From: Clostridium sp. AF37-5
GTDB taxonomy: Bacteria; Bacillota; Clostridia; Lachnospirales; Lachnospiraceae
Direction of reading: 5' to 3'
DNA: 64,000 nucleotides
Assembly (NCBI RefSeq): GCF_003477605.1
Contig: NZ_QUDR01000016.1
Span: 1-64,000 of the forward strand
Part shown: piece after piece, positions 42,703-64,000 of the stretch
Layout of the letters: every line of letters starts with the position of its first letter
How positions within the stretch are numbered: the stretch's first letter is position 1
Translations under genes and position numbers: made by a program
Notes under the pieces: generated by a model
What the model was told of the DNA's origin: nothing
The model's input: only the letters and a program-made list of their open reading frames with translations
The model's database searches: none

Positions 42703-42812
42703 CTATATATCATTTATCTTTGCTTGTCAATACTTTTTCTCAATAAATTTTATTTTTTTCACATTCGACATTTTTCTACATAATATATAGTAAAAACAAA
42801 AAAGGAGTTTCT

Positions 42813-43061
42813 ATGAATCTTTCAAAGAAACCATTAGCAATGGCATATGTCCCATGGCAGACTTTTGAAAATGTCATGGAGGGCGAATGTGCCTTAAGAC
42901 ACGGCACCATTTTCGAAGATTTAGTTTTTCCGTTTGTTGGTGCACAGGCTGCCTGCCAGGCAGACCGCAGTCAAAACCACTCCCATTCCGGTTCTTGTGG
43001 CTGCCATAACCGACAGCCCTATATGCAAAACAACTCCTGTGGAAGGCGAGGTGTTTATTGA
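42813..43061 (+). CDS. cotJA: Spore coat protein CotJA
   Basis: An 82-residue protein. The N-terminal region (LAMAYVPWQTFENVMEGECALRHGTIFEDLVFPF) matches CotJA of the inner spore coat. The C-terminal half is rich in His, Cys, Ser and Asn. AAAAGGAG precedes the ATG. Its end overlaps cotJB by 4 bp. A possible sporulation-sigma -10 (CATAATAT) lies upstream at about 42780, but this is weak. Confidence 0.88.
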   Translation: MNLSKKPLAMAYVPWQTFENVMEGECALRHGTIFEDLVFPFVGAQAACQADRSQNHSHSGSCGCHNRQPYMQNNSCGRRGVY

Positions 43062-43327
43062 TGAATCAAAACAGACATTCAAAGCATCAGAAAATGACCG
43101 CTGTACGTGAGGCCGGATTCTGCATGATTGACGCCGGTATGTATCTGGATACTCATCCTTGCGATGGCAAGGCAATGGATTATTTCAACCGTTACCAGCA
43201 GATGTACAAAGAAGCCGTCTGCGATTACGAAAAACACTGCGGACCGTTATTTTTAACCGGTATTGATACAAACGATGGCTGGACCTGGACCGATGAACCG
43301 TGGCCATGGGAAGGGGGGTGCAGCTGA
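43058..43327 (+). CDS. cotJB: Spore coat protein CotJB
   Basis: An 89-residue protein with AGFCMIDAGMYLDTHPCDGKA and FNRYQQMYKEA, as in CotJB. The C-terminus is Trp-rich (DGWTWTDEPWPWEGG). It overlaps cotJA by 4 bp, and its TGA shares its last base with the ATG of cotJC, so all three are translationally coupled. Confidence 0.9.
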   Translation: MMNQNRHSKHQKMTAVREAGFCMIDAGMYLDTHPCDGKAMDYFNRYQQMYKEAVCDYEKHCGPLFLTGIDTNDGWTWTDEPWPWEGGCS

Positions 43328-43425
43328 TGTGGACGTATGAACGACGACTGGAATACCCAGTCAATATCAAAACGCCGAATGCAAAATTGGCAAAAGTAAT
43401 AATCAGTCAGCTGGGTGGACCGTAG
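43327..43425 (+). pseudogene. cotJC: CotJC, 5' fragment (32 codons) cut at the prophage junction
   Basis: The frame encodes MWTYERRLEYPVNIKTPNAK and ends KVIISQLGGP, then TAG (43423-43425). This is the conserved N-terminus of CotJC, a manganese-catalase-like coat protein normally about 190-220 residues long that continues after the GGP. Nothing of the rest of CotJC follows; prophage lysis genes begin instead. The most likely reason is prophage insertion within cotJC, with the 3' part lying beyond the other prophage end outside this window. Excision would restore the gene. Confidence 0.85.
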
Positions 43426-43511
43426 TGCTGAGAGTTATAAAAAGATTTTTTCACTTTAGATTGTCCTTAAAATAACATAGAATTCACTGAAAGTAAAGGG
43501 ATTTCAGACTT

Positions 43512-44216
43512 TTAAATTTCTTTCACCTTTTTCAAACTAATCCATTGCCATTTGTCATTCTTTTTGTTCAACAAACGCCCCCAGGCACCAACCACCTTAG
43601 AAATCTTGACAACCTCTCCCGGATTTATGCTGCCAATTTTATTTGTAGGTTTTACACCCTTAGATGAGCGGATAGCTGCTGCCTTTGTTACTTTGGCTCT
43701 GTACTGATAATTATACATAATTTTGTTGTAAAGATGCTTCCATTTCAAGTTACCTTTACCGACCATTGGCTCTGGACACGCTTTGCCGTTGACGTCCCAA
43801 TGTCTAATGATAGTTTTTGCATTCGGACATCTCTTCTGAATATACAACACCAGCTCACGAATAGCAAGCATCTGTTCCCAACTTACACCTTTTTTGCAAT
43901 CACATAATTCAATGGACACACTGTTATCATTCGTGCACTTCTTATAATACGATGCAGCCCCGTTCTTACGAGTAAAGAAGTGACCAACCGCCCAGGCAGT
44001 ATATTCCATTGGCACGGACTCCCAAATCTCAGATTTTTTATCTACAAAGAAATGCGCACCTGCTTCCCTCGTGTTGCCAGTAGCGTAGAAATCAGCATTA
44101 TTCTTTGCTGTATCCCCTTTGTTCCCGGTGAAATGAATTACAATGTACTTTATGTCCTTTAAACTCCTTTTGCTCCCATAACTGATTGATTTTGCTCTTC
44201 TTTTTTTAATCTCCAT
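43512..44216 (-). CDS. Phage endolysin: N-acetylmuramoyl-L-alanine amidase with SH3-like domain
   Basis: A 234-residue lysin. The amidase_2 domain (about residues 20-150) has the zinc ligands in YIVIHFTG, AGAHFFVD and IIRHWDVNGKACPEP. The C-terminal ~65 residues look like a bacterial SH3 domain (INPGEVVKISKVVGAWGRLL, KWQWISL). No signal peptide is seen, so release depends on the holin encoded upstream. The start at 44216 has GGAAGGTGA upstream and lies inside the 3' end of the holin gene. Confidence 0.92.
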   Translation of the reverse strand: MEIKKRRAKSISYGSKRSLKDIKYIVIHFTGNKGDTAKNNADFYATGNTREAGAHFFVDKKSEIWESVPMEYTAWAVGHFFTRKNGAASYYKKCTNDNSVSIELCDCKKGVSWEQMLAIRELVLYIQKRCPNAKTIIRHWDVNGKACPEPMVGKGNLKWKHLYNKIMYNYQYRAKVTKAAAIRSSKGVKPTNKIGSINPGEVVKISKVVGAWGRLLNKKNDKWQWISLKKVKEI

Positions 44217-44640
44217 TCGTTTCACCTTCCTTATCTGCTTTCTGTTGCAATACCTCAATGGACTTTGTAATTACCGACGGAAGTTTAATTCCCATCAACC
44301 CCGCCTTCTCTACAACGGAAATTAATTCATTTGTTATAAACGCTATGACTACAGCATCTCGAAAATAATCGGTTCCAATTACCAAATCAACGCGATGTGC
44401 CACAAGAACAAATACAAACGACATTCCTTTTCGGCATAATCCTTTCCAGCAGGCACGAGATTCCAGTTTTCCCGTTGATGTCTTATTGCTCTTCTTAAAC
44501 ACACCCGCCACAAGCAATCCTGATACATAATCCACTGTCATAAAAATGAGAAGCGTTGTCATTCCGGAAGTCCATCCTCCAAAAAACGTTGCCACGCTAC
44601 TTCCAATCAACCCGCAAATCGTACAAATCATCTGTTTCAT
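44206..44640 (-). CDS. Phage holin
   Basis: A 144-residue membrane protein of the holin_4/TIGR01593 type. Hydrophobic segments lie at about residues 5-20, 25-45 and 75-95, with the conserved MTVDYVSGLLVAGVFKKSNKTSTG. The C-terminus is charged. The start at 44640 is chosen for the strong GGGGGA site upstream. Its 3' end overlaps the amidase gene by 11 bp. Confidence 0.88.
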   Translation of the reverse strand: MKQMICTICGLIGSSVATFFGGWTSGMTTLLIFMTVDYVSGLLVAGVFKKSNKTSTGKLESRACWKGLCRKGMSFVFVLVAHRVDLVIGTDYFRDAVVIAFITNELISVVEKAGLMGIKLPSVITKSIEVLQQKADKEGETNGD

Positions 44641-44668
44641 TCTATAAGTCCCCCTTTGTTTTTTTCTC

Positions 44669-44707
44669 AGTATAGCAAAGGAACTAGAAGTTTTACCCCC
44701 TAGTTCC
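44669..44707 (-). promoter_or_regulatory. Hairpin followed by an extended -10, before the lysis genes
   Basis: On the minus strand GGAACTAG (44700-44707) pairs with CTAGTTCC (44680-44687), then TTTGCTATACT gives a TGnTATACT extended -10 (44669-44674). It lies between the giant gene stop and the holin start, so the lysis genes may have their own promoter. Confidence 0.45.
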
Positions 44708-44719
44708 CATGCGAACCAC

Positions 44720-47700
44720 CTATTCCTCATTCCATTTTTTAAACGTATCGCTTGTATAGATGCATTTACCCTTTATTTTGAGCTTATACAGTTTCTGCAT
44801 AATAAGCTGTTTCTCATGCGTATTTTTAGCACTTCGAAACTTGTCTTTATACTCAGAGGATAATTTCGATCGAATGGACGCAAATGCTTTCTTCTCTTTC
44901 TTACTGGCACTAAGTTCATGCTTTTCATCGTCCTTTTCAATTTTCGTCATTGCTTCCTCGTACATCTGTTGTAATATTTCTTCGTAACCTTTTCCCTCCT
45001 CAATGGCAGCAACCAAATCATCGCTCTTGTAAAAAGAAAGATAATCATGTGCATCCTTTGCACCGGATTCCGTTTTGTCCTGCATCTTATTTAATGCACT
45101 GTTGGTAGCCGCTACAATCTCATAATGATTAAATCCCATTTTTATAAGTTTGTTATAACATTCCATATAACCATTATGATTTTTTGCAAGACGATACTGT
45201 GCCGCTTGCTTTACTAAATCATTTCGACTTGCCAGCTGGTCCTTTACCGCTGTTTCCACATCACCTTCACCTTTCTTCCCATTTTGTTTCATCTTCTCAC
45301 GGTATTGAGCAGCCGTCTTTTTGTCATCATCCATAAGTGCATCATAAATTTTCTTTCCATACACATTCGCTTTCGGCTCCTCTTTGTCCGTCGAAAACGA
45401 AAACAAGCCTTCCCCGGATGTCACATCCTCAACATTCTTCCAAATACCAACCGCTACATTTTTTACGTTGTCAACCGGAATACCGCACATTTTCGCCACT
45501 ACTCCAGCCGCATCAAAAAATGCATTCTTTATCGCATCCTTTCCATTCTCAGCCTCCTCGTCTGAATCGCTGAATGCATCAATTACTCCATTCCCCATTT
45601 TCACGATTGATTCACATAAAGAAGATATCTCACTAAACAGGGATACTTCAATTCCATAATACTTTTCCTTTGTAATTGCCGAATAGACAAGGTTATACAA
45701 TTCATTACCGCCTATAAAACTACCGGACAACGAACCCAACACCCCATTCATCCACTCAGACATAACACTCTCCGTTGTTAGTTCATTTTCATCATCACGA
45801 TAAGGATTTACCTTATGCAAAAGACCTCTTGCCAAAAATGTCATCGTAGAAAGCACTGCTGCCGATACCAGCTGACTGGATACTGCCCAAGCGAATTCCT
45901 TTCTTGCCTGTTTCTTCTGCTCCTTGGTTCCATTTTGGTTTTTCGCATGCAGATTGCATGCTGCATCATATAAAATACCGCCATTTTGCATACGCTGTGT
46001 CATAAACATAAACATGACTTTTTTAATTTTACTTGGATCACGCAAATAATCCGGTCGCTGCATAACCGTATAATTTGGCTGTGTGTCTTCCACGCATCGA
46101 TTAAACACTTCTGCCACTTGTCGATAATACGCATCGGTTTCCTTTTTCAAATCCTTATAATTTGCATCCACATAATATTGTGACGCATACCAAAGTCTGC
46201 CAACCGTAGCAACATCAACCTTTTGTATCATGTTCTTTACTTCTTTTACCACCGGCATACGATTGGTAAGGCTATTCAAATTATCAATATCAGCCATTTC
46301 CTGTGTTGAATTTCCTTTATTTCGATACCATAAAAGTGGCGTATATTTTGCAATCAGTTCTCGGTCAGCACTACTAATCGGAAGTCCGTGTTTACCTCCC
46401 TTTGCAAGAGCTTTCATCACCGGCTCCCAGCCAAGGGTGGCAACTGCTGTCGGATAAGATGCCGCCTGTTTCATAATAACCGACCAGTTCCCGGTCAGAA
46501 CAGAACCCGCAAAATTTCCACGGAGCATATCAAAGACCGTTGATTCCCCGGTTCTCGCATTTTGCAAATCCGAAATCAGGTTATCAATATAATTAGACGC
46601 CATCCTGCCCCACACATCCTGCATTGCCTTATGAACCGTATCGTCTTGTACTAATACCGATTTAGTGGATACATCTTCACTGTCTACATCTGTTACCTTC
46701 CACGTAGACCCATTATATACCTTGTTAAAATTCCTGATTGGAATGGCAAGACCACCAAACTCTGAGGTAATCTTCAATGACCTCTGTGCTGTATCAATGA
46801 TACTTTCCAATACCAATGGTTTTGTCGATTGTACACGCTCCTTCAAAAAGCCGGCACCTTCCAAAGTTTTATCCATTTTCAAACCGGTAATATCCGCAGC
46901 AACATAATTTTGGTCAACCGAAATCGGATAATAATTCTTCTCGTTTGCCTTTTTAAACCCATACAATTCCATCGAGGTCTCATTAATTACACGCCCCGTA
47001 TACTCATGAAATAACTTTTTAAAAGCACGAAGAACTTTCTTCTCTTCCGGCGACATGGCATCTTCCATCGCCTGAATCTTTGCGGACGTTACTCCTACAG
47101 CCTTTTTCGTTTTGTCATAGGCACCCTTTTTATCTCCCTTTAAATATAATTCCATGTTCGGCATCGTAACACCGCCATAAATCATATGTCGCAAGTTGTC
47201 CTTATTCATTCCATGCATAACAAGAGCCATACGCATTCCTTTCGTCACTTGTACCTTCTTGCCATCCTCATAAACAAGACCGGTGTCAACCATCCCCTGC
47301 TTCTTATCAAAAGTTTTCATCAATTTTACGACATTTTCGTCCTCCATCACATCCGCAAGAATAGCTTCACCATCTTGCTGGATTTTCAGCATTTTTCGCT
47401 GTCCTTCATTTAACTCACGCCATTCCTGCATAAACTCTCCATCCGCATATCCGGTAATCCGACGGAATGCTCGATAAGAGTTTAAAGATTTCAAAGTAAA
47501 CTCCGGAAATTTTCTCAAAACTTTATGTGTACTCATAAAGGAACTTACTCCTTTTGCCGAACGCACCTCATGAATGACTCGTTCTGCTGCCTTTCTGGCA
47601 TTTGTTTCCCCTTCTTTGCGAATCAGCTCAGTTGCCCTTCGAATCGTTTTATACACCATTTTCATCGCATCATATACTTCATCCAAATCCGCAGATGATA

Positions 47701-50700
47701 AATCATAAATGCTGTTTCCATTATTCTTAAACCTATTTGCAATACGCTGTAATTCATAGTCAATATCCTCATCATATTCCGATGCAAAATTGTAATCCGG
47801 ATCATTTTTCATTTTCTCAAAATACTGCCTTGCATCATCTAACGCATTATATAATTGCGTTCCTTCTTTCGCACCCAAATTGACAGCCTCGCACACATCA
47901 ATTACAGACCGAACCAAATCTTGTGGCACATACATCCCCTCTTTTGGTTTCATCAGCATTTGTCTCATCTGCTTATGCAAACGACGAATCTTATTCTTTG
48001 CTTCTGTCTGTTTTTTCTGCTCAGATAAATTCTTACGGTACTGACGATTCTCAATCTTCATTTCCGCAATCTTTTTATCCTGTCCTTTTTTTAATCTCTC
48101 GATGTACCTTTTTTGCTTTTCAATCTCATGCTGATACTTACGAATCAGTTCTCCGTTTTGTGTCGTCTCAATCACATTTGCATAATCATGTATCTTAGCA
48201 TACGCCTCTCGGATTCTCTGATTCTTGTTTTTTATCTGGTCATTCATACTCACCTTTAATCCTTCAAGGAATTGCTTTTCACATTCCTTGCGATAATCCT
48301 GGAGCATGGCAAGATACACTCGGTTTGCTTCCTTCCACTCACGCTCTACGGCGGCATCCGCCTTATCCTTAAACGTTTGTCTCTGTGGTATCATACTCAT
48401 TTCCTTGTAAATATTTAAGGCAAGGTCATAAGATGCCTGCTCAATATCTTCCCCATAAGCATTTCGATAAGTTGGTCGCAATCCGTCCAATACCGTCATT
48501 ACCTCTGCTATCATATCACCGTCATTGGTATCCGCCTTAAATAACTCCGGATACTTCTCGCTTAACTCTCCCCAGACCTGATCAAGAGTCGTCCCCTCCG
48601 AAACAATTCTAAGCCGTCCGAAATTACTCTTGCGAAACTCTCCCATACTTCCATACATGTAATTTACTTCACTTTTCTGGGCTTCCGACAACGCAAGTTT
48701 TGTTTTACGGAAATACTCTCGTAAATCTTTGTACTCGTTATACAATGTCATATCTTTTGCTGTGCTTTTTTCAAGGACACCTCGTGCAATCTCAGAAGTA
48801 ATCTTTAATGCCTCTTTATAATCCGCACCCTCTTCATTCATATAAGCATACAGTTTTGTCAGGTTATCCCGAAATGTTTCTGCATCAAAGGACGAATGAT
48901 ATTTTTTCAATATTTTTTTACATACTGCCTCTACACGTGCCGGTTCCGGAATGGTTTTCTTTCCCGGCTTAAATTCACTCTGAAGCATCTCCACAACTTT
49001 CTTTAATTGCTCATTTTCTTCTACCAGACTTTCCTCTGTTGTCATAGTTTCTGCCAATGAATGACGCAGTTTTTCTGCACGCTCTGATACATGAAGGGAA
49101 TATTTTTCGCCTTCACCGGATATAATGTTCTTGACAATCTCTTTGTATCGTGCTAGATTGTTACTATAATCCTGATGAAGTAAGCCCCCATGGGATTGGC
49201 CCATGGGCCACACTGCTTCATCAGGATTTACTTTTATTATCCGGTTTTCTTTACGAGCACTTTCAACATAATTCTGTATTGATTTCTTCCCATACAAACT
49301 GAGCATAACATTAGCAATCGTATGTTCACCTTTAACACGTCCACTACCATTGGGTTTAATTGCTGCAATAACAACATTTCCCTGATTGTCCTTTACATTT
49401 GTTACCAAAATTACATCCGCATTATTTTCATTTGTATTTGATTTTATAATCATTGCTGGTGTTTCTAATTGCTTCTGTAGTTTTGTAAATAATCCTTTTC
49501 CCAAACCATGATAATTTGTTTTTGGTTTAAAACGATTTTCTTTTTTTGCCTCTTCTTGCGTTTTTATTGTCGAATACACATGTTGGTTCGTCATAAGCAT
49601 TGGAAGATCATTCCAGCCTAGTTCCTTCAACGCTTTTGTTGTTTCTCCCAGATAAACATGCGTGTAATCTTTTGGTACGGTATCATTTAGCACATCATCT
49701 ATCTGCTTATCTAGATCAACACTAATAGAGTAGCGAATGTCCTTGTTTTCTCCACTATTGGCTTCTCTACTATTTTCTGCACGTTTCGATACACGAGTGG
49801 AATATTTTTCACCTTCACCAGATATAATGTTCTTGACAATCTCTTTGTATCGTGCTAGATTGTCCTTATAATCCTGATGAAGTATGTTCCCTCGGAATTG
49901 GACCGTTGGACCCACTGCTTTATCAGGATTTACTTTTATGATACGGTTCTCCCTTCCAGCTTTTTCGACATAATTATGCAGAGACTCTTTTCCATACATG
50001 CTTAACATAATATTAGCATCTAGCGTTGCTGTTTTCTTTCTTCCTACCCCATTTGGTTTAACTGCTGCAATGACAACATTTCCATTCTTATCAACAACAG
50101 AAGATACCATTACCAAATCTGCATTATTTTCTTTGTTATTGGATTTAATTATCATCCATGGGCTTTCAATGTCTTCCAATACATGCATAAACTTTTCTTT
50201 GCCTAAATTATGATAATTTCTTATTTTCTTATATCTTGCACCCTTATCTTCCTTCCCATTAATCACACTATACACGTGTTGGTTTGTCATAAGCATCGGA
50301 AGGTCATTCCAGCCTAATTCTTTCAAGGCTTTCGTTGTTTCTCCCAAATATACATGCGTATAATCTTTTGGTACGGTATCATTTAGCACATCATCTATCT
50401 GCTTATCCAGATCAACACTAATAGAGTAGCGAATGTCCTTGTTTTCCTTTGTTGGTTTTTCATTTGTCATTTTACTATCTTTGTTCTTGACATTCCCCAC
50501 AATGTTGGTTAGAATTTCTTCAAGAGATGGATTGTTGCTAGGGTTGCTTATAACTTTGTTATAGGTCCTAGTCTTGAACAACAATTCATCTCTTTTTATG
50601 GTTGCTACTTCATGCATATAAAATCTTTGCTTCGCATTTTCCCTACGCAATACAACAGCCATTATATATTTGCCACATATTTTTTCCTGACTTCCAACAA

Positions 50701-53700
50701 TTTCTATTGGTGCCGCAATTACAACTCTCGCATGACCTTTTCCTTTATAGTTACTGCTATAATTCACTATTTTCCCGTTCTTAATAATATCAGGAATTGC
50801 TTTAAAGGAAATTGCCTTCGCACGACCAATCCCATGTGATATATCATCTTTTACTCCTTTGCGGCTTAACTCAACATCCCCTAACATTTCATTATAAACA
50901 TTATTGCCGATATCATCGAAAAATTCTGCAACTTGGTCAACAAGTTTTATTTTCCCCTTTGAAAATTCCGTTTCTTTCACATTACTCACCGTCGGCATAT
51001 TTGCAACATCTTTTAGGTTCGTTTTAATATCATCTTGTATTGTATCCGGAATTACCTTGACCGAATACTTCCCTCTTTTCTCTTTTTCTTCACCCTTATT
51101 ATTACTATCCAATTTCTTGTAGTTCTCCCCCGCTTTATCCACGGCATCCATGAACATCTGCTGAATCTTTTCCTTCTGTTCCACGTTGAGTTCTGCTGCC
51201 AGTCTGGCCGCTTTTGTCATAGGAGTATCATCAATATATTTTTTTATCTTTTCAAATACATGCTTTACCAAATCTGCGATTTTCTGAAATACATTTTTCT
51301 TTGCATTCACATCCAGCTTCGCATCTTTCATTACCCAGTCAATAAAGTTTTTTGCCCCGGCTTCATCATAAAACACACCACTGACAGCATCGTTGATTAA
51401 CTCTCCTGCAGCATCCTCATAACTTTTTTCACCTTCCACCTGCTCATAGGCTCTTTGATAAGATTCAATTAAGGCGTGGATATCCTCTGCTCCATGTTTC
51501 TCTACCAGGTAATTAAGCATCACTCCCATTAATTTCTGATACTCTTTTTCCGACATTACCGATGCAAATTCCAAAGATTCATGTATCACTACACCAAATT
51601 TATTTTCTGCATCTTCCGCAAATGCCATCTGTCCTCTATCCATATTCAATAAACCATTTACCGTATCTGCATCTTTATCTGTGAGGGTATTTAAATCCAA
51701 TACATCCAATCCGGTTTTCTTTGCCAATTCTTTTTTCACGCGAACAAAGCTATCCTTATCCTCCGAAGCATAGCGGTAATCTTCATATTCACCTTTTCCT
51801 TTTTTTTGCGCCGGTGCAACTTTGTTTTCTGCCTCTGCTGCCTTTGCGTTTTCTCCATGTACCTTTCCTAATTCATACACAAGACGCATTGCTCCCTTGT
51901 CACTCATTATACGAAATGACTTAGACGCCTGCATCATTTTATCAAAACTGATACTTCCCAATCTTCCCATACGATATGCCATACGGAAATTATTTGCATA
52001 AACACCGGCATTATCCTTACCATTGTAATAATCCACAAGTGCCGTTGCCGCAGCCGCATTATCCATCTTTGATGCAATGTTAAACAAATTCTGTGTACCT
52101 TCATCCTGAAAAGACAAGTCTGCAAGATTTACTACCTCACCATCCGTAGTCTCTACTGTAGCCGATTCTTTCCCAATTTCCCGAAATCCTTTTACCTTTA
52201 CTTGTTCGTCAGATGCCGTAAATGCCGCATTCTCTGTCTTTCTAAAATTAGCATTCGTAACATTTTCTGACGGTGCATCATTCTGCTTTGTCTTTTCCGG
52301 CTGTAGTTCTTGTACCTCAACCGGTCGCTGATTCCGTTCCATTCCCTCGTCAAGATTCACACGATCGAATGTAGTATCTATATTAGCAGTAGCATCTTCC
52401 TCCTGCTTCGACACAGACTCCTTCTGCATCATCTCGCTTTTCTGATTCAGAGATACTGTCCTTTTCATTGCATTTGAAACAGAGGCATCCATAATGTCAT
52501 ACAATGCCTGCCGCTCGGATTCGAATTTTGCATATTTACTCTTTTTAGCTAACTCCTGTGCTTTCTCGCGTGCCATCTGGTCGATTTCTACTCCCAGACT
52601 ATCCGGCACACCACGAATGGCATCTTCATACGCCCTTGCAAGTTCTCCGCTCGTTCTTGCTTCTGTAAAATTATTTTCAGCATTTTCCATGATGTCTACT
52701 GAAATTTTACCGTATTTTTCCGTATCATCTTTTGCCTTCTCGTAAGTGTCCATACCTCTTTTTGCAGCATATGCAAGTAAATCTGTGCCTTCATTTCCCT
52801 CTGTAATCGATGTCCCATTCTTTTTCACTAATGACTCATACTGTGCTTTCGAATACACATTTGCATAGGTACCAAAAAGACCACCTGAAAAAGCCCCTGC
52901 TGCCGTGTCCTCTGCTACTTGTATCAAGAAGTCTTTCCGTGCATTTTTCTTTGCCTCATCCTTTGACATTCCCTGCTGGATATAATTTTTAACATTTTCA
53001 TTATACTCACTTTTACTTCCATTAACTGCACGGTCGACAAATGCATTTGCAAAGTCCGAAGCAAGTTCTTCTGATCCTTCTACCGCCCCCTGTTTTACAA
53101 GATTCTTTGCAAAATCGCGAAACTGTTTTGGATTTGTTGTTTTTAACGCCTCAAAACTATCCAGTGAAAACTTTTCGCTTGCCCACTCTGCCAAACCGGC
53201 TCCCAATCCGGTAATCAAAGACTGTCCGGCACTTCCTGTTCTCTCATAGGTGTCCATGTACGATTGATTTGCCGCATTTGCTCCCATCAACGCACTAGCT
53301 GCCCCACCTGCTAGCTTGGTTCCCTTAACCCCTTTCGTCACAAGAATATCCGCAGCAGAATCAACCGTGGACATTCCAGCATTGTAAACAAATTTACCGA
53401 TATCATTATCGATGCCTTCTGACACGGTCTGTCTTACATTATTCGTATAAGAACTGTATGGATGGCTGGCATGATTAATGGGATAAGACTTATCCGATGA
53501 CAGGTTTTTAACCGCATGATTTACATCCTCTGCAAGTTCCAACGGTGAAAGCAAGTTTGACCCCACACTTAACGCACTAGATACTACCGGATGTTCGTCT
53601 GCTATTTTTCTTGTCCCTTCATCCCATGCCTCCTGTTCTTTATTATCTGTGTTAATGTTCTCGCTGTCGATAATGTAATCTACATCAATTCCTTTTTCCT

Positions 53701-54658
53701 TTAATTCCTTCAACTTAGGAAATTTCTCATATGCTTGTGACAAATAATCCGGATTACTGCTTACTTCCAGCTTGTCCTGTATCGTCGGAACTAAATGATT
53801 TTTATCTGCACTGTATTTTCTTTTCTCTACCCACACATAATCTGCTGCCTTTTTTACTAACTGCTTATCGGTATCCCCCAACTTATCGTATTCATGCTCC
53901 AGCTCTACACGTGGTTGATTACTCTCCAGTTCTTTCATATACTCAACATTATCCTGGTACTTATTCCACAAACTGGTGTATTCCTTGTAATCTTCCCACG
54001 ATACACCTTTTTTTCCTAACTTTTCCTCAAAATCTTTTGGCTGAACTTTTTCCCATTCTCCCGAAAATCCCCGTTTAAACAAACCACTATCTGCGATTCT
54101 GGACTTAAACAAGTCTTTATTTTCCTTTACATTTGCAAGCGCAGTTTGAATTTCATCATAGTTCATTTGTGATGGATTTCTGTATGTATTACCAGATGAA
54201 GTCCGAAATAACTGGTTTGTCTTTTCCGCATTATTATTGCGAACATTACTTCCATTTGTACTCTGCTGTTCTCTCTGCTTTCTTCTCTGCTGTTCCTGTT
54301 TTTCCCTTTGTTCCCGTCTCGGAATTTCCGACAGCATATTATTTTCTGCCTTTGCTGCATTGCGAATCAGCGTATTGGTTCTCTTATACTTTTCGCTGTT
54401 CTTTTGCGTTCTTTCTTTAATTTCTACTGCTTTCTCTGCCAATCGGCGATAGCGGGATTCTGACTGATTCGTATAGTCGGTATCCGAATACTTTTTATCC
54501 TCACCATAATAAGAATCAGCCTTTGCTCTGGTCTCACTTGCTATTTTTTGTCCCTGCATATCTCTTTCATACAACTTGTCCTGACTCTCAAAATAATTTG
54601 ATATAATACTCCCGGAACCGGATGCATGATTATTCTGTTTCTTTTTCTTATTTGCCAT
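44720..54658 (-). CDS. Giant phage polyvalent protein, probably ejected with the DNA
   Basis: A 3312-residue protein. The N-terminus is Gln/Arg/Lys-rich and coiled (1-145). Around residue 1025 a zincin-like segment reads VVIHESLEFA, where the usual HExxH is degenerate. At about 1265-1345 lies a region resembling LPD3 (SHGIGRAKAISFKAIPDI, HARVVIAAPIEIVG, QRFYMHEVATI). Residues 1405-1636 and 1637-1868 are two tandem copies of a MuF-C-terminal/BECR nuclease-like domain (VYLGETTKALKELGW, MIIKS, NGNVVIAA). Long coiled coils follow (about 2090-2250). The C-terminal third has features common to large phage internal proteins (NFAGSVLTGNWSVIMKQAASYP near 2720-2745). The place in the gene order and size suggest an ejected virion protein; no polymerase motifs were found. 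Confidence 0.8.
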   Translation of the reverse strand: MANKKKKQNNHASGSGSIISNYFESQDKLYERDMQGQKIASETRAKADSYYGEDKKYSDTDYTNQSESRYRRLAEKAVEIKERTQKNSEKYKRTNTLIRNAAKAENNMLSEIPRREQREKQEQQRRKQREQQSTNGSNVRNNNAEKTNQLFRTSSGNTYRNPSQMNYDEIQTALANVKENKDLFKSRIADSGLFKRGFSGEWEKVQPKDFEEKLGKKGVSWEDYKEYTSLWNKYQDNVEYMKELESNQPRVELEHEYDKLGDTDKQLVKKAADYVWVEKRKYSADKNHLVPTIQDKLEVSSNPDYLSQAYEKFPKLKELKEKGIDVDYIIDSENINTDNKEQEAWDEGTRKIADEHPVVSSALSVGSNLLSPLELAEDVNHAVKNLSSDKSYPINHASHPYSSYTNNVRQTVSEGIDNDIGKFVYNAGMSTVDSAADILVTKGVKGTKLAGGAASALMGANAANQSYMDTYERTGSAGQSLITGLGAGLAEWASEKFSLDSFEALKTTNPKQFRDFAKNLVKQGAVEGSEELASDFANAFVDRAVNGSKSEYNENVKNYIQQGMSKDEAKKNARKDFLIQVAEDTAAGAFSGGLFGTYANVYSKAQYESLVKKNGTSITEGNEGTDLLAYAAKRGMDTYEKAKDDTEKYGKISVDIMENAENNFTEARTSGELARAYEDAIRGVPDSLGVEIDQMAREKAQELAKKSKYAKFESERQALYDIMDASVSNAMKRTVSLNQKSEMMQKESVSKQEEDATANIDTTFDRVNLDEGMERNQRPVEVQELQPEKTKQNDAPSENVTNANFRKTENAAFTASDEQVKVKGFREIGKESATVETTDGEVVNLADLSFQDEGTQNLFNIASKMDNAAAATALVDYYNGKDNAGVYANNFRMAYRMGRLGSISFDKMMQASKSFRIMSDKGAMRLVYELGKVHGENAKAAEAENKVAPAQKKGKGEYEDYRYASEDKDSFVRVKKELAKKTGLDVLDLNTLTDKDADTVNGLLNMDRGQMAFAEDAENKFGVVIHESLEFASVMSEKEYQKLMGVMLNYLVEKHGAEDIHALIESYQRAYEQVEGEKSYEDAAGELINDAVSGVFYDEAGAKNFIDWVMKDAKLDVNAKKNVFQKIADLVKHVFEKIKKYIDDTPMTKAARLAAELNVEQKEKIQQMFMDAVDKAGENYKKLDSNNKGEEKEKRGKYSVKVIPDTIQDDIKTNLKDVANMPTVSNVKETEFSKGKIKLVDQVAEFFDDIGNNVYNEMLGDVELSRKGVKDDISHGIGRAKAISFKAIPDIIKNGKIVNYSSNYKGKGHARVVIAAPIEIVGSQEKICGKYIMAVVLRRENAKQRFYMHEVATIKRDELLFKTRTYNKVISNPSNNPSLEEILTNIVGNVKNKDSKMTNEKPTKENKDIRYSISVDLDKQIDDVLNDTVPKDYTHVYLGETTKALKELGWNDLPMLMTNQHVYSVINGKEDKGARYKKIRNYHNLGKEKFMHVLEDIESPWMIIKSNNKENNADLVMVSSVVDKNGNVVIAAVKPNGVGRKKTATLDANIMLSMYGKESLHNYVEKAGRENRIIKVNPDKAVGPTVQFRGNILHQDYKDNLARYKEIVKNIISGEGEKYSTRVSKRAENSREANSGENKDIRYSISVDLDKQIDDVLNDTVPKDYTHVYLGETTKALKELGWNDLPMLMTNQHVYSTIKTQEEAKKENRFKPKTNYHGLGKGLFTKLQKQLETPAMIIKSNTNENNADVILVTNVKDNQGNVVIAAIKPNGSGRVKGEHTIANVMLSLYGKKSIQNYVESARKENRIIKVNPDEAVWPMGQSHGGLLHQDYSNNLARYKEIVKNIISGEGEKYSLHVSERAEKLRHSLAETMTTEESLVEENEQLKKVVEMLQSEFKPGKKTIPEPARVEAVCKKILKKYHSSFDAETFRDNLTKLYAYMNEEGADYKEALKITSEIARGVLEKSTAKDMTLYNEYKDLREYFRKTKLALSEAQKSEVNYMYGSMGEFRKSNFGRLRIVSEGTTLDQVWGELSEKYPELFKADTNDGDMIAEVMTVLDGLRPTYRNAYGEDIEQASYDLALNIYKEMSMIPQRQTFKDKADAAVEREWKEANRVYLAMLQDYRKECEKQFLEGLKVSMNDQIKNKNQRIREAYAKIHDYANVIETTQNGELIRKYQHEIEKQKRYIERLKKGQDKKIAEMKIENRQYRKNLSEQKKQTEAKNKIRRLHKQMRQMLMKPKEGMYVPQDLVRSVIDVCEAVNLGAKEGTQLYNALDDARQYFEKMKNDPDYNFASEYDEDIDYELQRIANRFKNNGNSIYDLSSADLDEVYDAMKMVYKTIRRATELIRKEGETNARKAAERVIHEVRSAKGVSSFMSTHKVLRKFPEFTLKSLNSYRAFRRITGYADGEFMQEWRELNEGQRKMLKIQQDGEAILADVMEDENVVKLMKTFDKKQGMVDTGLVYEDGKKVQVTKGMRMALVMHGMNKDNLRHMIYGGVTMPNMELYLKGDKKGAYDKTKKAVGVTSAKIQAMEDAMSPEEKKVLRAFKKLFHEYTGRVINETSMELYGFKKANEKNYYPISVDQNYVAADITGLKMDKTLEGAGFLKERVQSTKPLVLESIIDTAQRSLKITSEFGGLAIPIRNFNKVYNGSTWKVTDVDSEDVSTKSVLVQDDTVHKAMQDVWGRMASNYIDNLISDLQNARTGESTVFDMLRGNFAGSVLTGNWSVIMKQAASYPTAVATLGWEPVMKALAKGGKHGLPISSADRELIAKYTPLLWYRNKGNSTQEMADIDNLNSLTNRMPVVKEVKNMIQKVDVATVGRLWYASQYYVDANYKDLKKETDAYYRQVAEVFNRCVEDTQPNYTVMQRPDYLRDPSKIKKVMFMFMTQRMQNGGILYDAACNLHAKNQNGTKEQKKQARKEFAWAVSSQLVSAAVLSTMTFLARGLLHKVNPYRDDENELTTESVMSEWMNGVLGSLSGSFIGGNELYNLVYSAITKEKYYGIEVSLFSEISSLCESIVKMGNGVIDAFSDSDEEAENGKDAIKNAFFDAAGVVAKMCGIPVDNVKNVAVGIWKNVEDVTSGEGLFSFSTDKEEPKANVYGKKIYDALMDDDKKTAAQYREKMKQNGKKGEGDVETAVKDQLASRNDLVKQAAQYRLAKNHNGYMECYNKLIKMGFNHYEIVAATNSALNKMQDKTESGAKDAHDYLSFYKSDDLVAAIEEGKGYEEILQQMYEEAMTKIEKDDEKHELSASKKEKKAFASIRSKLSSEYKDKFRSAKNTHEKQLIMQKLYKLKIKGKCIYTSDTFKKWNEE
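49055..50446 (-). repeat. Two 696-bp tandem units inside the giant gene
   Basis: Units 49751-50446 and 49055-49750 each encode 232 residues. The first ~60 residues of each unit are identical (from ENKDIRYSIS to NQHVYS), the middle is diverged, and the end (NLARYKEIVKNIISGEGEKYS) is identical again. The pattern points to duplication followed by recombination or replacement of the middle. Confidence 0.9.
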
Positions 54659-56140: not shown

Positions 56141-57139
56141 TTAAGCCTTTCTATACCAACCGTATACATACCAATCGCTATATGTTTTTCCGGACGCGTA
56201 TGCCCCATTCTGGACATAATATGAACCACTGCCGCTAATTAGATTAAATGGTGAATTAGTTCCATTGCCACTCGACACAATTCCAATCGGATAGACATTT
56301 GATGGACGACTATGGTCAGGTTCATATGGCAGTCCGCTTATATGATGACAAGCATAACTACTTGTTGTTAATATCATTGCCTCTATAAATACAATGTCTC
56401 CCAGTCTATAATAATTTCCCGTAGCCGCTGCAATTGACGTTTTAATCTCATTACTTGCTGTATTAAACAGTCTAGGAGTCCATGTTCCTTTTTCGTATTT
56501 TGCTGTGTATTTTGTATAATTACTTGAATCCAGCAGCGTCTTCCATGTGTCCCAAGTTCCACTTGACATGGCTCTATGCTGCAATATTCCATTATTAAGC
56601 ATGGCCAGTTGTGAATCCCAACCACTCGTATTATCCCAATTCATTTGCAGTATCTTTGCATCACCCCCGGGCTTTCCCGTTGTCATCTTAGAACTGGCAA
56701 CAAATGCTTCTACTGCTCCCATCCTATCGGATGTACTCGATTTATCTGCAGATGCCGGACGCGTTGCAATATAATTAAGCAATGTGCTTATTCCTGCCGG
56801 CCCCATTGGTCCTTGCGCCCCAGTATCTCCTTTTGGTCCCTGAACACCTTGAATCCCTTGTGGTCCAGTTTCTCCCTGTGGTCCTTGTGGCCCTTCCGGT
56901 CCCGTTGCTCCGGTGTCTCCTTTGGGTCCTTGTGGTCCCGTTGCTCCGGTATCTCCTTTAAGGCCTTGTGGTCCCTGTGCTCCGGTGTCCCCCTTCGCAC
57001 CAGTATCACCCTTTTCCCCTTGTTCTCCCTGCGGTCCCGTTGCTCCAGTATCTCCTTTAGGTCCTTGCGCCCCGGTATCTCCTTTCTCTCCTTTAAGACC
57101 TTGCGGCCCCTTAAAATTTCCAATCAAAAATTTTGCCAT
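56141..57139 (-). CDS. Collagen-like phage fibre protein with C-terminal receptor-binding-like domain
   Basis: A 332-residue protein. Residues about 11-118 are G-x-y collagen repeats ([17 protein letters not shown]). The C-terminal part (about 130-332) is beta-rich, with [14 protein letters not shown], a trimer-forming or receptor-binding-like domain and a Tyr/Trp-rich end ([13 protein letters not shown]). Collagen-like triple helices are used as stalks in phage fibres. It lies 15 bp downstream of a second collagen-like gene. Confidence 0.85.
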
Positions 57140-57154
57140 TGTATCACTTCCTAT

Positions 57155-58036
57155 CTATTCATCCGGTAATATTAAATAAATGTCTCCAGTAGAATCTATT
57201 TCAAATTGAGGCGGTGTCTCATCATCTGTAGTAACCGCATATAGGTTTCCGTCAGCGTCTCCCATCAGATAAAAGAATCCATTAATTGGATTGATTACAC
57301 CACTGTCACCTCTCTCGCCTTTATCTCCTTTATCTCCTTTTGGACCTCGAATTCCTTGTGGACCTTCTGGTCCGATTTCACCAGTTGCACCTCTCGGTCC
57401 TTGTAAACCTTGTGGTCCGGTTTCTCCGGGTACCCCCTGCAATCCTTGTACCCCGGTTTCTCCAGTATCTCCTTTGTCTCCTTTTACTCCCTGTTCCCCT
57501 TTTGGACCAGGCAGCCCTTGTGTCCCCTGTGGTCCACGCACTCCCTGAATTCCCTTTTCACCTTGCACACCTTGAATTCCTTGTGGACCTTCTGGTCCAA
57601 TTTTTCCTTCCGGTCCAGTCAGCCCCTGCACACCCTGCGGTCCGCAATCACCCTTCTCTCCCTTTTCTCCTTGCACACCGTCTTTTCCTACATCGCCTTT
57701 CTCTCCCTTTTCTCCATCTGCGCCTTTGTCACCTTTGTCACCTTTGTCACCCTTCTCTCCCTTATCACCCTTCTCTCCTTTTTCTCCCCGTAACCCGCCG
57801 CTCTCTAACTGTTGCTTTAACTTGTCTGCAATCTCTTTTGCTTCCTTTGCCATCTTTACAGTTTCCTGCACTTGACTAAATTTCTTTTCTGTCTCCGATG
57901 TCATATTATCGGTCTCTATATTGTTCAATACATAACTTAGATTTTCTATCAAACGAATGATCCAGGAATTTAATTTCTGAATGTTTTTTTCGTCAATTCC
58001 ATCCAGTTGTATTGGATCAAACTGTAACGTAGCCAT
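57155..58036 (-). CDS. Collagen-like phage fibre or stalk protein
   Basis: A 293-residue protein. The N-terminal ~75 residues form a helical, coiled-coil-like attachment part ([19 protein letters not shown]). Residues about 78-248 are G-x-y repeats ([16 protein letters not shown] at first, then GPQG-type). A short C-terminal cap follows ([18 protein letters not shown]). Its N-terminus may dock to the tail and its C-terminus may connect to the next fibre. Its ATG overlaps the stop of the tail gene upstream. Confidence 0.85.
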
Positions 58037-60647: not shown

Positions 60648-61664
60648 TTAGTTTGCTGTTACTGTGCCGGCTTTAAAACCACACGACTCAATACGAATCA
60701 TGTACTGTTCCACCAGACGCTCTGCCGTCTTAATAGCTTTCCAGCCAACCGTTGAACGCTGATTCAACGGGTCTTCTCCCGAACCCAGCTGTTTGACAAT
60801 ATGCTGTAATCCGCCACCTTCTACTTCAGTTACACCGTAGGCGTGTGCTGCAATTACCATTGTGCAGTAAACCGCCAAACCTTCCGGACAGGTTTCGTCT
60901 TTCAGAATTTTGGCTTCTGAATTCTCTACGAAACGAATATTTCCAATGCGTCCGATTTCACCCTTCCACATCTTATCCGGTGTCGTGTACTTATTCCATT
61001 CCTCAAATCCCTTTGATGTTTTCACATCATAAGCAGCGTTCGGATGAATAACACATACAAAGGCATCCTCTATTGTTTCCGCGTTTACACTTCCAAGATA
61101 GGCTGCTGCCTGCAAAAAGATATCTACATTCAATTTGCAGGTTCCATCCAATGTCTTTCTTGTAAGGACCTCTGTGCCGTCCGATTTAGGTGCATACATT
61201 ACATTGGTGCCACCGCTAATTACATCACGCGTAATGGTATCTAACGTACGTCCAGCCTGCGAACCACTTAACTTTGTAGCCTGCACCACATTGTTATCAA
61301 TTGCTGTGAGTTCCAGCACATCCGTAAGAGTGATATAATCACCGTACTGCTGTACCTCGGATTTAACCGTGGTCACCTTCATCTTACTACCATCCGGCGT
61401 TACGCCTTCCACCAAAGGGGTGGTGTTTTTCGGTAACGAATCATACTTTCTAAATTCGATTACCTTACCACCGTTTTTTGGAATTGGATATTTATCACCA
61501 AACTGGTCAAACACCAATTTTGGCTCTGCCATCGTAATCAGAGATTTTTCATAAAACTCTTTCATCTCGGCAGTCATTCCCGAGTCGCCTGTTGTATTTG
61601 GATTTAAATTCCCTGCAAACATCTGTAAAGACATTCGTTTTGCCAATTTTCTTGCTTTGTTCAT
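60648..61664 (-). CDS. Major capsid protein, N4-gp56 family
   Basis: A 338-residue capsid protein. The N4-gp56-type pattern includes VIEFRKYDSLPKNTTPLVEGVTP, QQYGDYITLTDVLELTAIDN and LSGSQAGRTLDTITRDVISGG (in part). It starts MNKARKLAKRMSLQMFAGN, so residues 13-17 are LQMFA, a Prp-type cleavage motif. Removal of the N-terminus by the phage protease at 62676 is likely. The start at 61664 has GGAGG upstream. Confidence 0.9.
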   Translation of the reverse strand: MNKARKLAKRMSLQMFAGNLNPNTTGDSGMTAEMKEFYEKSLITMAEPKLVFDQFGDKYPIPKNGGKVIEFRKYDSLPKNTTPLVEGVTPDGSKMKVTTVKSEVQQYGDYITLTDVLELTAIDNNVVQATKLSGSQAGRTLDTITRDVISGGTNVMYAPKSDGTEVLTRKTLDGTCKLNVDIFLQAAAYLGSVNAETIEDAFVCVIHPNAAYDVKTSKGFEEWNKYTTPDKMWKGEIGRIGNIRFVENSEAKILKDETCPEGLAVYCTMVIAAHAYGVTEVEGGGLQHIVKQLGSGEDPLNQRSTVGWKAIKTAERLVEQYMIRIESCGFKAGTVTAN

Positions 61665-61691
61665 TTTGCTTACCTCCATTCTGCACATCGG

Positions 61692-63021: not shown

Positions 63022-64000
63022 CTATACACTTGCCATACTGTTTGCCTGTTCCTTTGCTCCATCTAAGCGCTCGCTCTTTGTCATTGCTCCACCTAGAGTA
63101 TCATTTTTCATTGTCTGCTTCGAATCCTGTCCCGGTGGATTTGGGTCTCCACCATTTACAATCTCCTGCCCCTGTACGCCTACCATCTGCATAAGTTGCT
63201 GTACCTGCTGTTGCAATGCCATTAACTGTTGATACATCGTTCCGTTATTCTGTATTTTCATAATAATTTTTTCCTTACCTTCAAACTCCATCATATCAAG
63301 GCAGGCTAACGATGCATCGGCATTTCCCGGAGCAAAGAATCCTTTGTCGTAAAACTGAAGTGCAAGTTCATTCTGGGCCATTCGTGAGTAAGTTGACTTT
63401 TTCGCTGCGGAGACAGTTACATCAAAGATAGGCAGTCTATCTCCAACCTCCACTCCCATTTCGTCTCCCATATTCTGTGGAATCATCATCCCGTTATCAA
63501 ATGTGGCGAATTGCTGTTCCCCCTTATCCCCTAAGATTCTAAATTTACGCGGTTCATCGTAAAACTGACGTATCAGTTCAATCACCATATAACATTCTTC
63601 CATGTAGGCGCGATAAGTTCCACGTATCATATCTCTGGATAACTTACTTCCCGCTTCCTGCAAAGCTGCAATTGCAGTTGCGGCCGTAACACCGCTTTGT
63701 GTACTTCCCTGAGAAAAATCACGATTACCGGAGGTTTCTTTCAATTCGTTTATCTTTTCCTCTTTCACATTGATACACTGGGTCGGTGGAACCACCTGCT
63801 GCATCGGCTGAATATCATCCGGATTTCCTGTGTAATGAACAATTTCTTTTGTCCAATCATTAAATTCCTCCTCATTGATGCCACCGGTATCTTTTGAAAG
63901 ATATCTCGCTTTACTTGCTTTGATGGCAGAATCCAGGATAACCTGATCTAATTTATCAATGTAGAGCTGTGGATCTTTCATGATATCGATATAGCCAAAT
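63022..64000 (-). CDS. Phage portal protein, C-terminal part (cut by window end)
   Basis: The frame runs off the window (codons before MKDPQLYI read FGYIDI). The visible 326 residues include helical segments typical of portals (STQSGVTAATAIAALQEAGS, TYRAYMEECYMVIELIRQFYDEP) and a Gln/Met-rich C-terminus (MYQQLMALQQQVQQLMQMVG). Its position at the head of the capsid block supports the call. The N-terminus is outside the window. Confidence 0.8.
   Translation of the reverse strand, partial: FGYIDIMKDPQLYIDKLDQVILDSAIKASKARYLSKDTGGINEEEFNDWTKEIVHYTGNPDDIQPMQQVVPPTQCINVKEEKINELKETSGNRDFSQGSTQSGVTAATAIAALQEAGSKLSRDMIRGTYRAYMEECYMVIELIRQFYDEPRKFRILGDKGEQQFATFDNGMMIPQNMGDEMGVEVGDRLPIFDVTVSAAKKSTYSRMAQNELALQFYDKGFFAPGNADASLACLDMMEFEGKEKIIMKIQNNGTMYQQLMALQQQVQQLMQMVGVQGQEIVNGGDPNPPGQDSKQTMKNDTLGGAMTKSERLDGAKEQANSMASV

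What the first reader, a model, noticed from the sequence alone, without database searches (positions are those of the whole stretch)
43327..43512. Prophage inserted in the spore-coat gene cotJC
Seen: cotJA and cotJB are intact, and cotJC is intact for 32 codons up to the conserved GGP, then stops; phage lysis genes begin within about 90 bp. Known: in several spore-formers prophages interrupt sporulation genes (sigK, spsM and others) and are removed in the mother cell by a site-specific recombinase. Inference: this is such an element, and precise excision would rebuild CotJC. Lysis genes at this end predict the recombinase gene and cotJC 3' part at the far end.
Basis: partly seen in the sequence, partly recalled or inferred. 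Interest (0 to 1): 0.82.

Follow-up and report, generated by a model that had tools for sequence, protein, structure and literature searches.

The report
Prophage splits a spore-coat catalase gene
A virus has inserted itself at an exact spot inside a spore-coat gene of a gut bacterium; relatives show that this gene is a favourite landing place, sometimes cut by two elements at once yet still kept by natural selection, which implies that cells cut the inserts out and rebuild the gene, probably when they make spores.

Summary
Confirmed, and larger than reported. cotJC in the window reads 32 codons (43327-43422) up to a GGTGGACC core in the GGP codons; phage lysis genes follow. The far prophage end lies outside the window and no genome is held for it. 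The nearest relative, G001, has a homologous prophage at the same base. There both ends are seen: phage arms that are exact inverted repeats around the core, a large serine recombinase (LSR) near the far end, then cotJC from the next codon. A second element cuts that gene further on; the three pieces rejoin to a 202-aa CotJC.

cotJC is a recurrent target in Lachnospiraceae: 64 of 244 sampled genomes with any Mn-catalase match hold it in two or more pieces, broken at three recurrent places (SpoIIP control: 0 of 80, contig-end breaks aside). LSRs sort by site on a tree. Six species share a cotJC cut in three; the split gene shows dN/dS 0.00-0.09, like the intact paralogue. A gene in pieces under such selection must be reassembled. 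Mother-cell timing is inferred from skin and SPbeta: a sporulation-type promoter precedes some LSRs, but none of the 14 checked in the window's genus. I found no printed report of cotJC as a target.

The parts
42779..42786 (+). CATAATAT, sporulation-type -10-like element 34 bases before cotJA
   Evidence: read; function inferred, not tested
42813..43061 (+). cotJA, intact
   Evidence: Pfam CotJA
43058..43327 (+). cotJB, intact
   Evidence: Pfam CotJB
43327..43425 (+). cotJC 5' part, 32 codons and a stop that begins in phage DNA
43414..43421 (+). attL core GGTGGACC (cotJC nt 88-95)
   Evidence: shared by window and both ends of the G001 element
43426..43440 (+). phage arm of attL, TGCTGAGAGTTATAA
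   Evidence: G001 arms TTATAACTCTCAGCTA and TAGCTGAGAGTTATAA are exact inverted repeats around the core
43512..44258 (-). endolysin (N-acetylmuramoyl-L-alanine amidase)
   Evidence: Pfam Amidase_2 E 3.1e-22, PHROG endolysin
44206..44730 (-). holin
   Evidence: Pfam Phage_holin_4_1 E 2.1e-32
44720..54658 (-). 3312-aa phage protein, homologous to G001 prophage
   Evidence: 73% over 1687 aa
58036..59913 (-). internal virion protein-like
   Evidence: phrog_511 E 1.7e-58
60648..61688 (-). major head protein
   Evidence: Pfam Phage_capsid_4 E 1.8e-7, phrog_1357 E 1.9e-79
63022..63999 (-). portal protein, cut by the window end; prophage continues beyond
   Evidence: Pfam P22_portal E 8.2e-23

Best explanation
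A temperate phage with a P22-like portal is integrated by a large serine recombinase at an attachment site made of the Gly-Gly-Pro codons of cotJC, the spore-coat Mn-catalase gene. Shown: attL in the window; both ends, arms, recombinase and the remaining codons in the sister lysogen G001; purifying selection on cotJC genes cut by similar elements in the same genus. Inferred: in the sporulating mother cell the recombinase, probably with a directionality factor, excises the phage between attL and attR and rejoins cotJC in frame, while the spore keeps the prophage. The element thus uses a gene needed only in a dying cell as a harbour. In this family cotJC is a hub for such elements, with at least three recurrent sites served by distinct recombinase lineages, sometimes two in one gene.
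For: Junction, inverted-repeat arms and LSR in G001; homologous phage; G001 pieces rejoin to 202 aa, 93.6% identical to the intact gene of G434. 64 of 244 sampled genomes with two or more cotJC pieces (my count). 33 of 36 rejoined elements give 185-247 aa and the same 33 keep five presumed metal ligands. LSRs sort by site with 2 changes on the tree against a shuffled mean of 34.3. Split gene dN/dS 0.000-0.088 in 15 pairs of six species, intact paralogue 0.004-0.061, elements homologous where compared. Complete attP of the commoner site-1 kind in two viral contigs.
Against: No excision was observed. The window's own right end is unseen. The sporulation-type promoter before LSRs is found in 25 of 75 but in none of 14 LSRs checked in the window's genus, G001 included. 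No directionality factor was identified. Some elements look decayed, with only LSR fragments (L202, L234, broken LSR copy in L219). Several relatives have a second intact cotJC, so loss of this copy might be tolerated.
Confidence: 0.78

Rival explanations
1. Ordinary inactivating lysogeny: the recombinase happens to recognise cotJC, a dispensable gene, which is simply lost in the lysogen; the phage leaves only on induction.
For: Prophage-size element with lysis and head genes; some species keep a second intact cotJC; no LSR in the window's genus shows the promoter; a few elements look decayed.
Against: Split copies in six species stay under dN/dS 0.00-0.09 with elements that are homologous between species where compared; this copy's nearest relatives G001, G002 and G466 show no intact copy (draft assemblies).
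Confidence: 0.15
2. Decayed duplicate: the window copy is a pseudogene that broke by chance next to phage genes.
For: Some relatives carry a second, intact cotJ operon.
Against: The break is at the exact core used in G001 and other genomes, with inverted-repeat phage arms; cotJA and cotJB are intact.
Confidence: 0.03
3. Assembly artefact: a chimeric join of phage and host contigs.
For: Many of the genomes are draft or metagenome assemblies.
Against: The same junction with the same arm occurs in G001, and both ends of other elements lie in order on long contigs, e.g. G286:C1 of 2.86 Mb and G142:C1 of 2.92 Mb.
Confidence: 0.02

Closest known systems
skin elements in sigK (B. subtilis, C. difficile)
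   Same: Large serine recombinase, sporulation gene split in frame; excision in the mother cell is shown there (PMC5025042, passages).
   Different: Other target gene; here three recurrent sites in one coat gene, double insertions, and full-size phages as well as small elements.
SPbeta prophage in spsM (B. subtilis)
   Same: A phage inside a spore-envelope gene, removed in sporulation to rebuild it (PMC4191935, passages).
   Different: Other gene; excision not observed here; no directionality factor identified here.
gin element in gerE (B. cereus)
   Same: Non-phage element with serine recombinases (PMC5595907, passages), as in the small cotJC elements such as L003 and L388.
   Different: The window's element is a prophage; cotJC is a coat catalase, not a regulator.
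yin element in yabG (C. botulinum) and vfbin, vrin in spoVFB, spoVR
   Same: Prophage-like elements in sporulation genes (passages of PMC4191935 and PMC10747680).
   Different: Single reported targets; YabG family gave no match in 120 Lachnospiraceae genomes.
phi027 beside cotG (C. difficile)
   Same: A prophage at a CotJC-like catalase gene.
   Different: It lies next to a 678-bp gene downstream of attR and is not said to split it (PMC11222575, PMC12122855, passages).

Membership tests
Sporulation gene-intervening elements (skin, SPbeta, gin, yin kind) | Element lies inside a sporulation gene whose two parts are in order and frame | tested here: met
   5' part in the window; both parts in order in G001 (across contigs) and in 36 elements, 33 of 36 rejoin to 185-247 aa. 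For the window's own 3' part: not testable.
Sporulation gene-intervening elements (skin, SPbeta, gin, yin kind) | Element encodes a site-specific serine recombinase near an end | tested here: met
   Met in G001 and for 111 junction-LSR pairs, duplicates included; the window's own recombinase is outside the window.
Sporulation gene-intervening elements (skin, SPbeta, gin, yin kind) | Attachment site: inverted-repeat phage arms around a short core shared with the gene | tested here: met
   G001 both ends; window has core and one arm.
Sporulation gene-intervening elements (skin, SPbeta, gin, yin kind) | The interrupted gene remains functional over evolution | tested here: met
   dN/dS 0.000-0.088 in six species with doubly split cotJC; not tested for the window's own gene.
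Sporulation gene-intervening elements (skin, SPbeta, gin, yin kind) | Recombinase or directionality factor under mother-cell control | tested here: inconclusive
   CATANNNT at -60..-18 in 25 of 75 cotJC LSRs, 1 of 27 and 3 of 19 controls; 0 of 14 in the window's genus; no directionality factor sought by experiment.
Sporulation gene-intervening elements (skin, SPbeta, gin, yin kind) | Precise excision during sporulation rebuilds the gene | not testable with these tools
   Needs sporulating cells.
Temperate phage integrated by a serine integrase | Lysis, head and portal genes with an att site | tested here: met

The most novel reading that the evidence does not exclude
cotJC of Lachnospiraceae is a programmed split-gene hub: at least three codon sites, served by distinct serine-recombinase lineages, host a changing cast of prophages and small elements, some with defence-like genes, so that in many species one coat gene must be rebuilt by one or two excisions in each sporulating mother cell, an arrangement kept under strong selection across species.
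Probability: 0.68. Interest if true: 0.88.

Novelty: new variant of a known kind. Interest (0 to 1): 0.8.

Why it matters
The sporulation intervening elements that I could find in print are single cases in scattered genes. Here one coat gene is hit again and again, at codons that lie between its presumed metal ligands, by recombinases that sort by target site, and doubly split copies are kept across species without decay. If excision is shown, programmed DNA rearrangement would be a common trait of gut Lachnospiraceae. It also offers many natural recombinase and attachment-site pairs with defined cores, and makes testable why a coat catalase gene is so tolerant a harbour and whether two excisions in one gene must be ordered.

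Tried and rejected
Exact attL pattern in viral contigs: 0 hits; window/G001 att-arm pattern: 0; full attP version: 0. Megablast of the phage part against phage records: no match. Endolysin relatives in viral contigs: 1. Of 52 viral loci with a related capsid, the records of 12 were searched for CotJC pieces: 0 of 12, so this capsid lineage as a whole is not tied to cotJC. YabG as a control gene: 0 of 120 genomes. SpoIVA as a second control did not complete and not asked again.

dN/dS across the family failed because synonymous sites are saturated: 9 usable split pairs, median 0.27, maximum 0.395; only G003/G004 has a low dS (0.28) and gives 0.061. The genus set replaced it. That scripts found no stops inside pieces means nothing, since pieces were taken from stop-free frames; I do not use it. 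A first set of other LSRs is no clean negative control, because most are relatives of the G001 LSR with unknown targets; LSRs of the same genomes were used instead.

Dropped before counting: G022 and G130 (weak matches, E 4e-4 and 8e-4) to stay within 80 handles; G041 (frameshift), G224 and G357 (intact), G020 and G347 (unclear), and G061, G212, G232, G310, G346, G352, G383 (one piece only; a contig end was not excluded, and in G383 is close by). In five counted genomes (G044, G078, G118, G177, G342) a further piece is counted by the tool but fell below the end of its listing.

Full report
What is in the window. The cotJ operon is on the plus strand; genes that look like a Fur-type regulator, a rubrerythrin and SecDF lie before it on the minus strand (names from recall, not tested). 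cotJA and cotJB are complete. cotJC begins at 43327 and gives 32 codons ending in GGP, then TAG. Eighty-seven bases after the stop the endolysin ORF ends, and lysis, virion, head and portal genes follow on the minus strand to the window edge. The window ends inside the prophage and no genome is held for it, so the far end had to be sought in relatives.

The sister lysogen. A scan of genome contigs with CotJB found 22 stretches, 4 of them relatives; in all 4 cotJC is broken. The nearest, G001 (MAG Eubacterium sp. SUG160, CotJB 74%), has at the same core a prophage whose endolysin, holin and 3312-aa protein are 71-73% identical to those of the window. Its left junction reads CAGTTCGGTGGACC|GTGTAGCTGAGAGTTATAA, the window's CAGCTGGGTGGACC|GTAGTGCTGAGAGTTATAA. 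On another contig of G001 stands TTATAACTCTCAGCTATTC|GGTGGACC|CGATGGAGAG: the exact reverse complement of the left arm, then the core, then the next cotJC codons. So the two contigs hold the two ends of one element with an attP of the serine-integrase kind. About 1.1 kb inside that end is a 498-aa LSR (Resolvase and Recombinase domains), with an Abi_2/AbiD-like gene between. The cotJC piece runs on to codon 62 and is cut again by a second element; the rest is on a third contig. The three pieces rejoin to 202 aa, 93.6% identical to the uninterrupted gene of G434, which forms one clade with G001 and the window in a CotJB/CotJC tree (SH-aLRT 95).

How common. In a sample of 397 genomes of the family of G002, 244 had a Mn_catalase match. 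Of these, 78 had a best match weaker than 1e-41; 76 of the 78 were searched again with a CotJC profile, together with G001, G003 and G004. By my reading of that listing 67 of the 79, that is 64 of the 76, have two or more separate cotJC pieces with breaks near codon 32, 65 or 136; 7 more show a single piece that ends there; 5 do not count (G041 frameshift, G224 and G357 intact, G020 and G347 unclear). So at least 64 of 244. Genomes with an intact copy besides a split one were not searched again, so this is a lower bound. Where pieces share a contig they lie on one strand and in order in all 25 single-locus cases rejoined. As a control SpoIIP matched in 80 of 120 genomes with no internal split; G101 has two pieces, one ending at a contig end, and G052 an extra fragment at a contig end. 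Fisher p is 2e-9, or 3e-8 if G101 counts as split. IMG/VR gave 68 loci with CotJC matches.

Sites and recombinases. For 36 elements with both ends in hand the bases shared at the junction are GGNGGNCC (site 1), GGNACNGAAG or GAACTNGCACA (site 2) and GCAGCAGA (site 3). 27 of 36 share at least 5 bases; 33 of 36 rejoin to 185-247 aa, and the same 33 keep E35, E65, H68, E136 and H169, which I take from recall to be the metal ligands. One of the 33, G263, covers codons 26 on only, since its 5' side is itself an element end. Failures: G102 (5' part elsewhere), G286 (no core found by the script), G227 (3' piece short). Two hundred and four junction rows, duplicates included, gave 111 with an LSR within 1.5 kb (95 within 300 bp, median 119) and 93 without; each element needs one at one end only. 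In a FastTree of 83 LSRs (a few from the same genome) the 36 of site 1 and the 10 of site 3 each form one group (support 100) and the 37 of site 2 need two changes; in all 2 changes, the least possible, against a shuffled mean of 34.3; the tool warned of a possible long-branch join among site-2 rows. The G001 LSR sits in the site-1 group beside L254, a viral contig that also runs into cotJC; 7 of 76 new viral loci with relatives of the G001 LSR carry a cotJC piece. A middle piece with an LSR close by on each side is seen in L210, L283, L290, L294 and L312.

Selection. In the genus of G001, 25 of 39 genomes have a CotJC match. Tree rows fall into an all-intact cotJ type (11 rows) and a second type of 24 rows, 14 split and 10 intact, that holds the window; G464's intact copy lies outside both. 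Six species (G445, G453, G465, G457, G458, G452) have the second type cut at sites 2 and 3 and the first type intact (the 5' piece of G458 is not held). The site-2 element is homologous among the four species compared (78-99% of length, 81-91% identity) and the site-3 element among four (67-100%, 81-95%); G452 was not compared, G457 only at site 2, G458 only at site 3. This points to ancestral insertions, though repeated insertion of like elements is not fully excluded. Over up to 186 codons away from the junctions, dN/dS of the split gene is 0.000-0.088 in 15 pairs, against 0.004-0.061 for the intact paralogue in the same pairs; G465-G452 has 30 synonymous and no other change. The LSRs of these elements give 0.10-0.22 in 12 pairs. 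A gene in three pieces would not be kept so unless it is reassembled. Outside this genus G003 and G004 share the DNA before the 3' piece (91% over 890 bp) and give 0.061 at dS 0.28.

Timing. A sporulation-type -10 element, CATANNNT, stands 18-60 bases before the start of 25 of 75 cotJC-element LSRs (site 1: 9 of 32; site 2: 16 of 35; site 3: 0 of 8), 9 of them with a T-rich box upstream, against 1 of 27 other LSRs of the same genomes and 3 of 19 others (Fisher p 0.002, relatedness ignored). But in the window's genus it is absent from all 14 LSRs checked, the six-species elements, G002 and G001 among them. So mother-cell control may act there through a directionality factor, as in C. difficile skin (PMC5025042, passages), or not at all. 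Complete attP of the commoner site-1 kind occurs in two viral contigs, so a joined phage form exists.

Print. Eight searches of the open library (listings, several cut at 15-40 rows) showed no report of cotJC split by an element. Passages were read in PMC5595907, PMC4191935, PMC11222575, PMC12122855, PMC10747680 and PMC5025042. Known targets there are sigK, spsM, spoVFB, spoVR, gerE and yabG; phi027 lies beside a CotJC-like gene. Subscription papers and preprints are not covered.

Verdict. The kind is known; the target, its several sites and recombinase lineages, and doubly split genes under purifying selection make a new variant. Excision in the mother cell remains to be shown.

Noticed in passing
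L331 (G032:C41:4392-7694), ORF 404-871 minus and LSR 853-2487 minus: An LSR with the same T-rich box and CATACAAT element ends at a truncated gene with a peptidoglycan-binding domain, perhaps a cortex-lytic enzyme: possibly another sporulation gene cut by such an element.
   Followed up: partly
L194:3197-4150; L212:3618-5012; L003:5341-7570: Defence-like cargo next to cotJC junctions: AbiD-like, AbiL-like ATPase, and a Schlafen-group helicase with a MazG-like gene.
   Followed up: partly
L388:2365-16428: The elements in doubly split cotJC of G445 carry no obvious phage genes but what look like a LytTR regulator, a large sensor kinase, an SGNH hydrolase and a chemoreceptor-like protein (names from recall, not tested).
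   Followed up: no
window 44720-54658: A single 3312-aa phage ORF of nearly 10 kb; an internal block seems to be repeated (RYSISVDLDKQIDDVLNDTVPKDYTHVYLGETTKALKELGWNDLPM occurs twice).
   Followed up: no
window 56141-58036: Two neighbouring phage proteins with long collagen-like GXX repeats.
   Followed up: no
LSR upstream regions, e.g. L248, L198, L078: A near-palindromic box like GTATTTTTTATAC shared before LSRs of different clades may be an operator of an unknown regulator.
   Followed up: partly
G064:C68 (L231): Two cotJC 3' parts (codons 57-199) lie in tandem about 3.5 kb apart on one contig.
   Followed up: no
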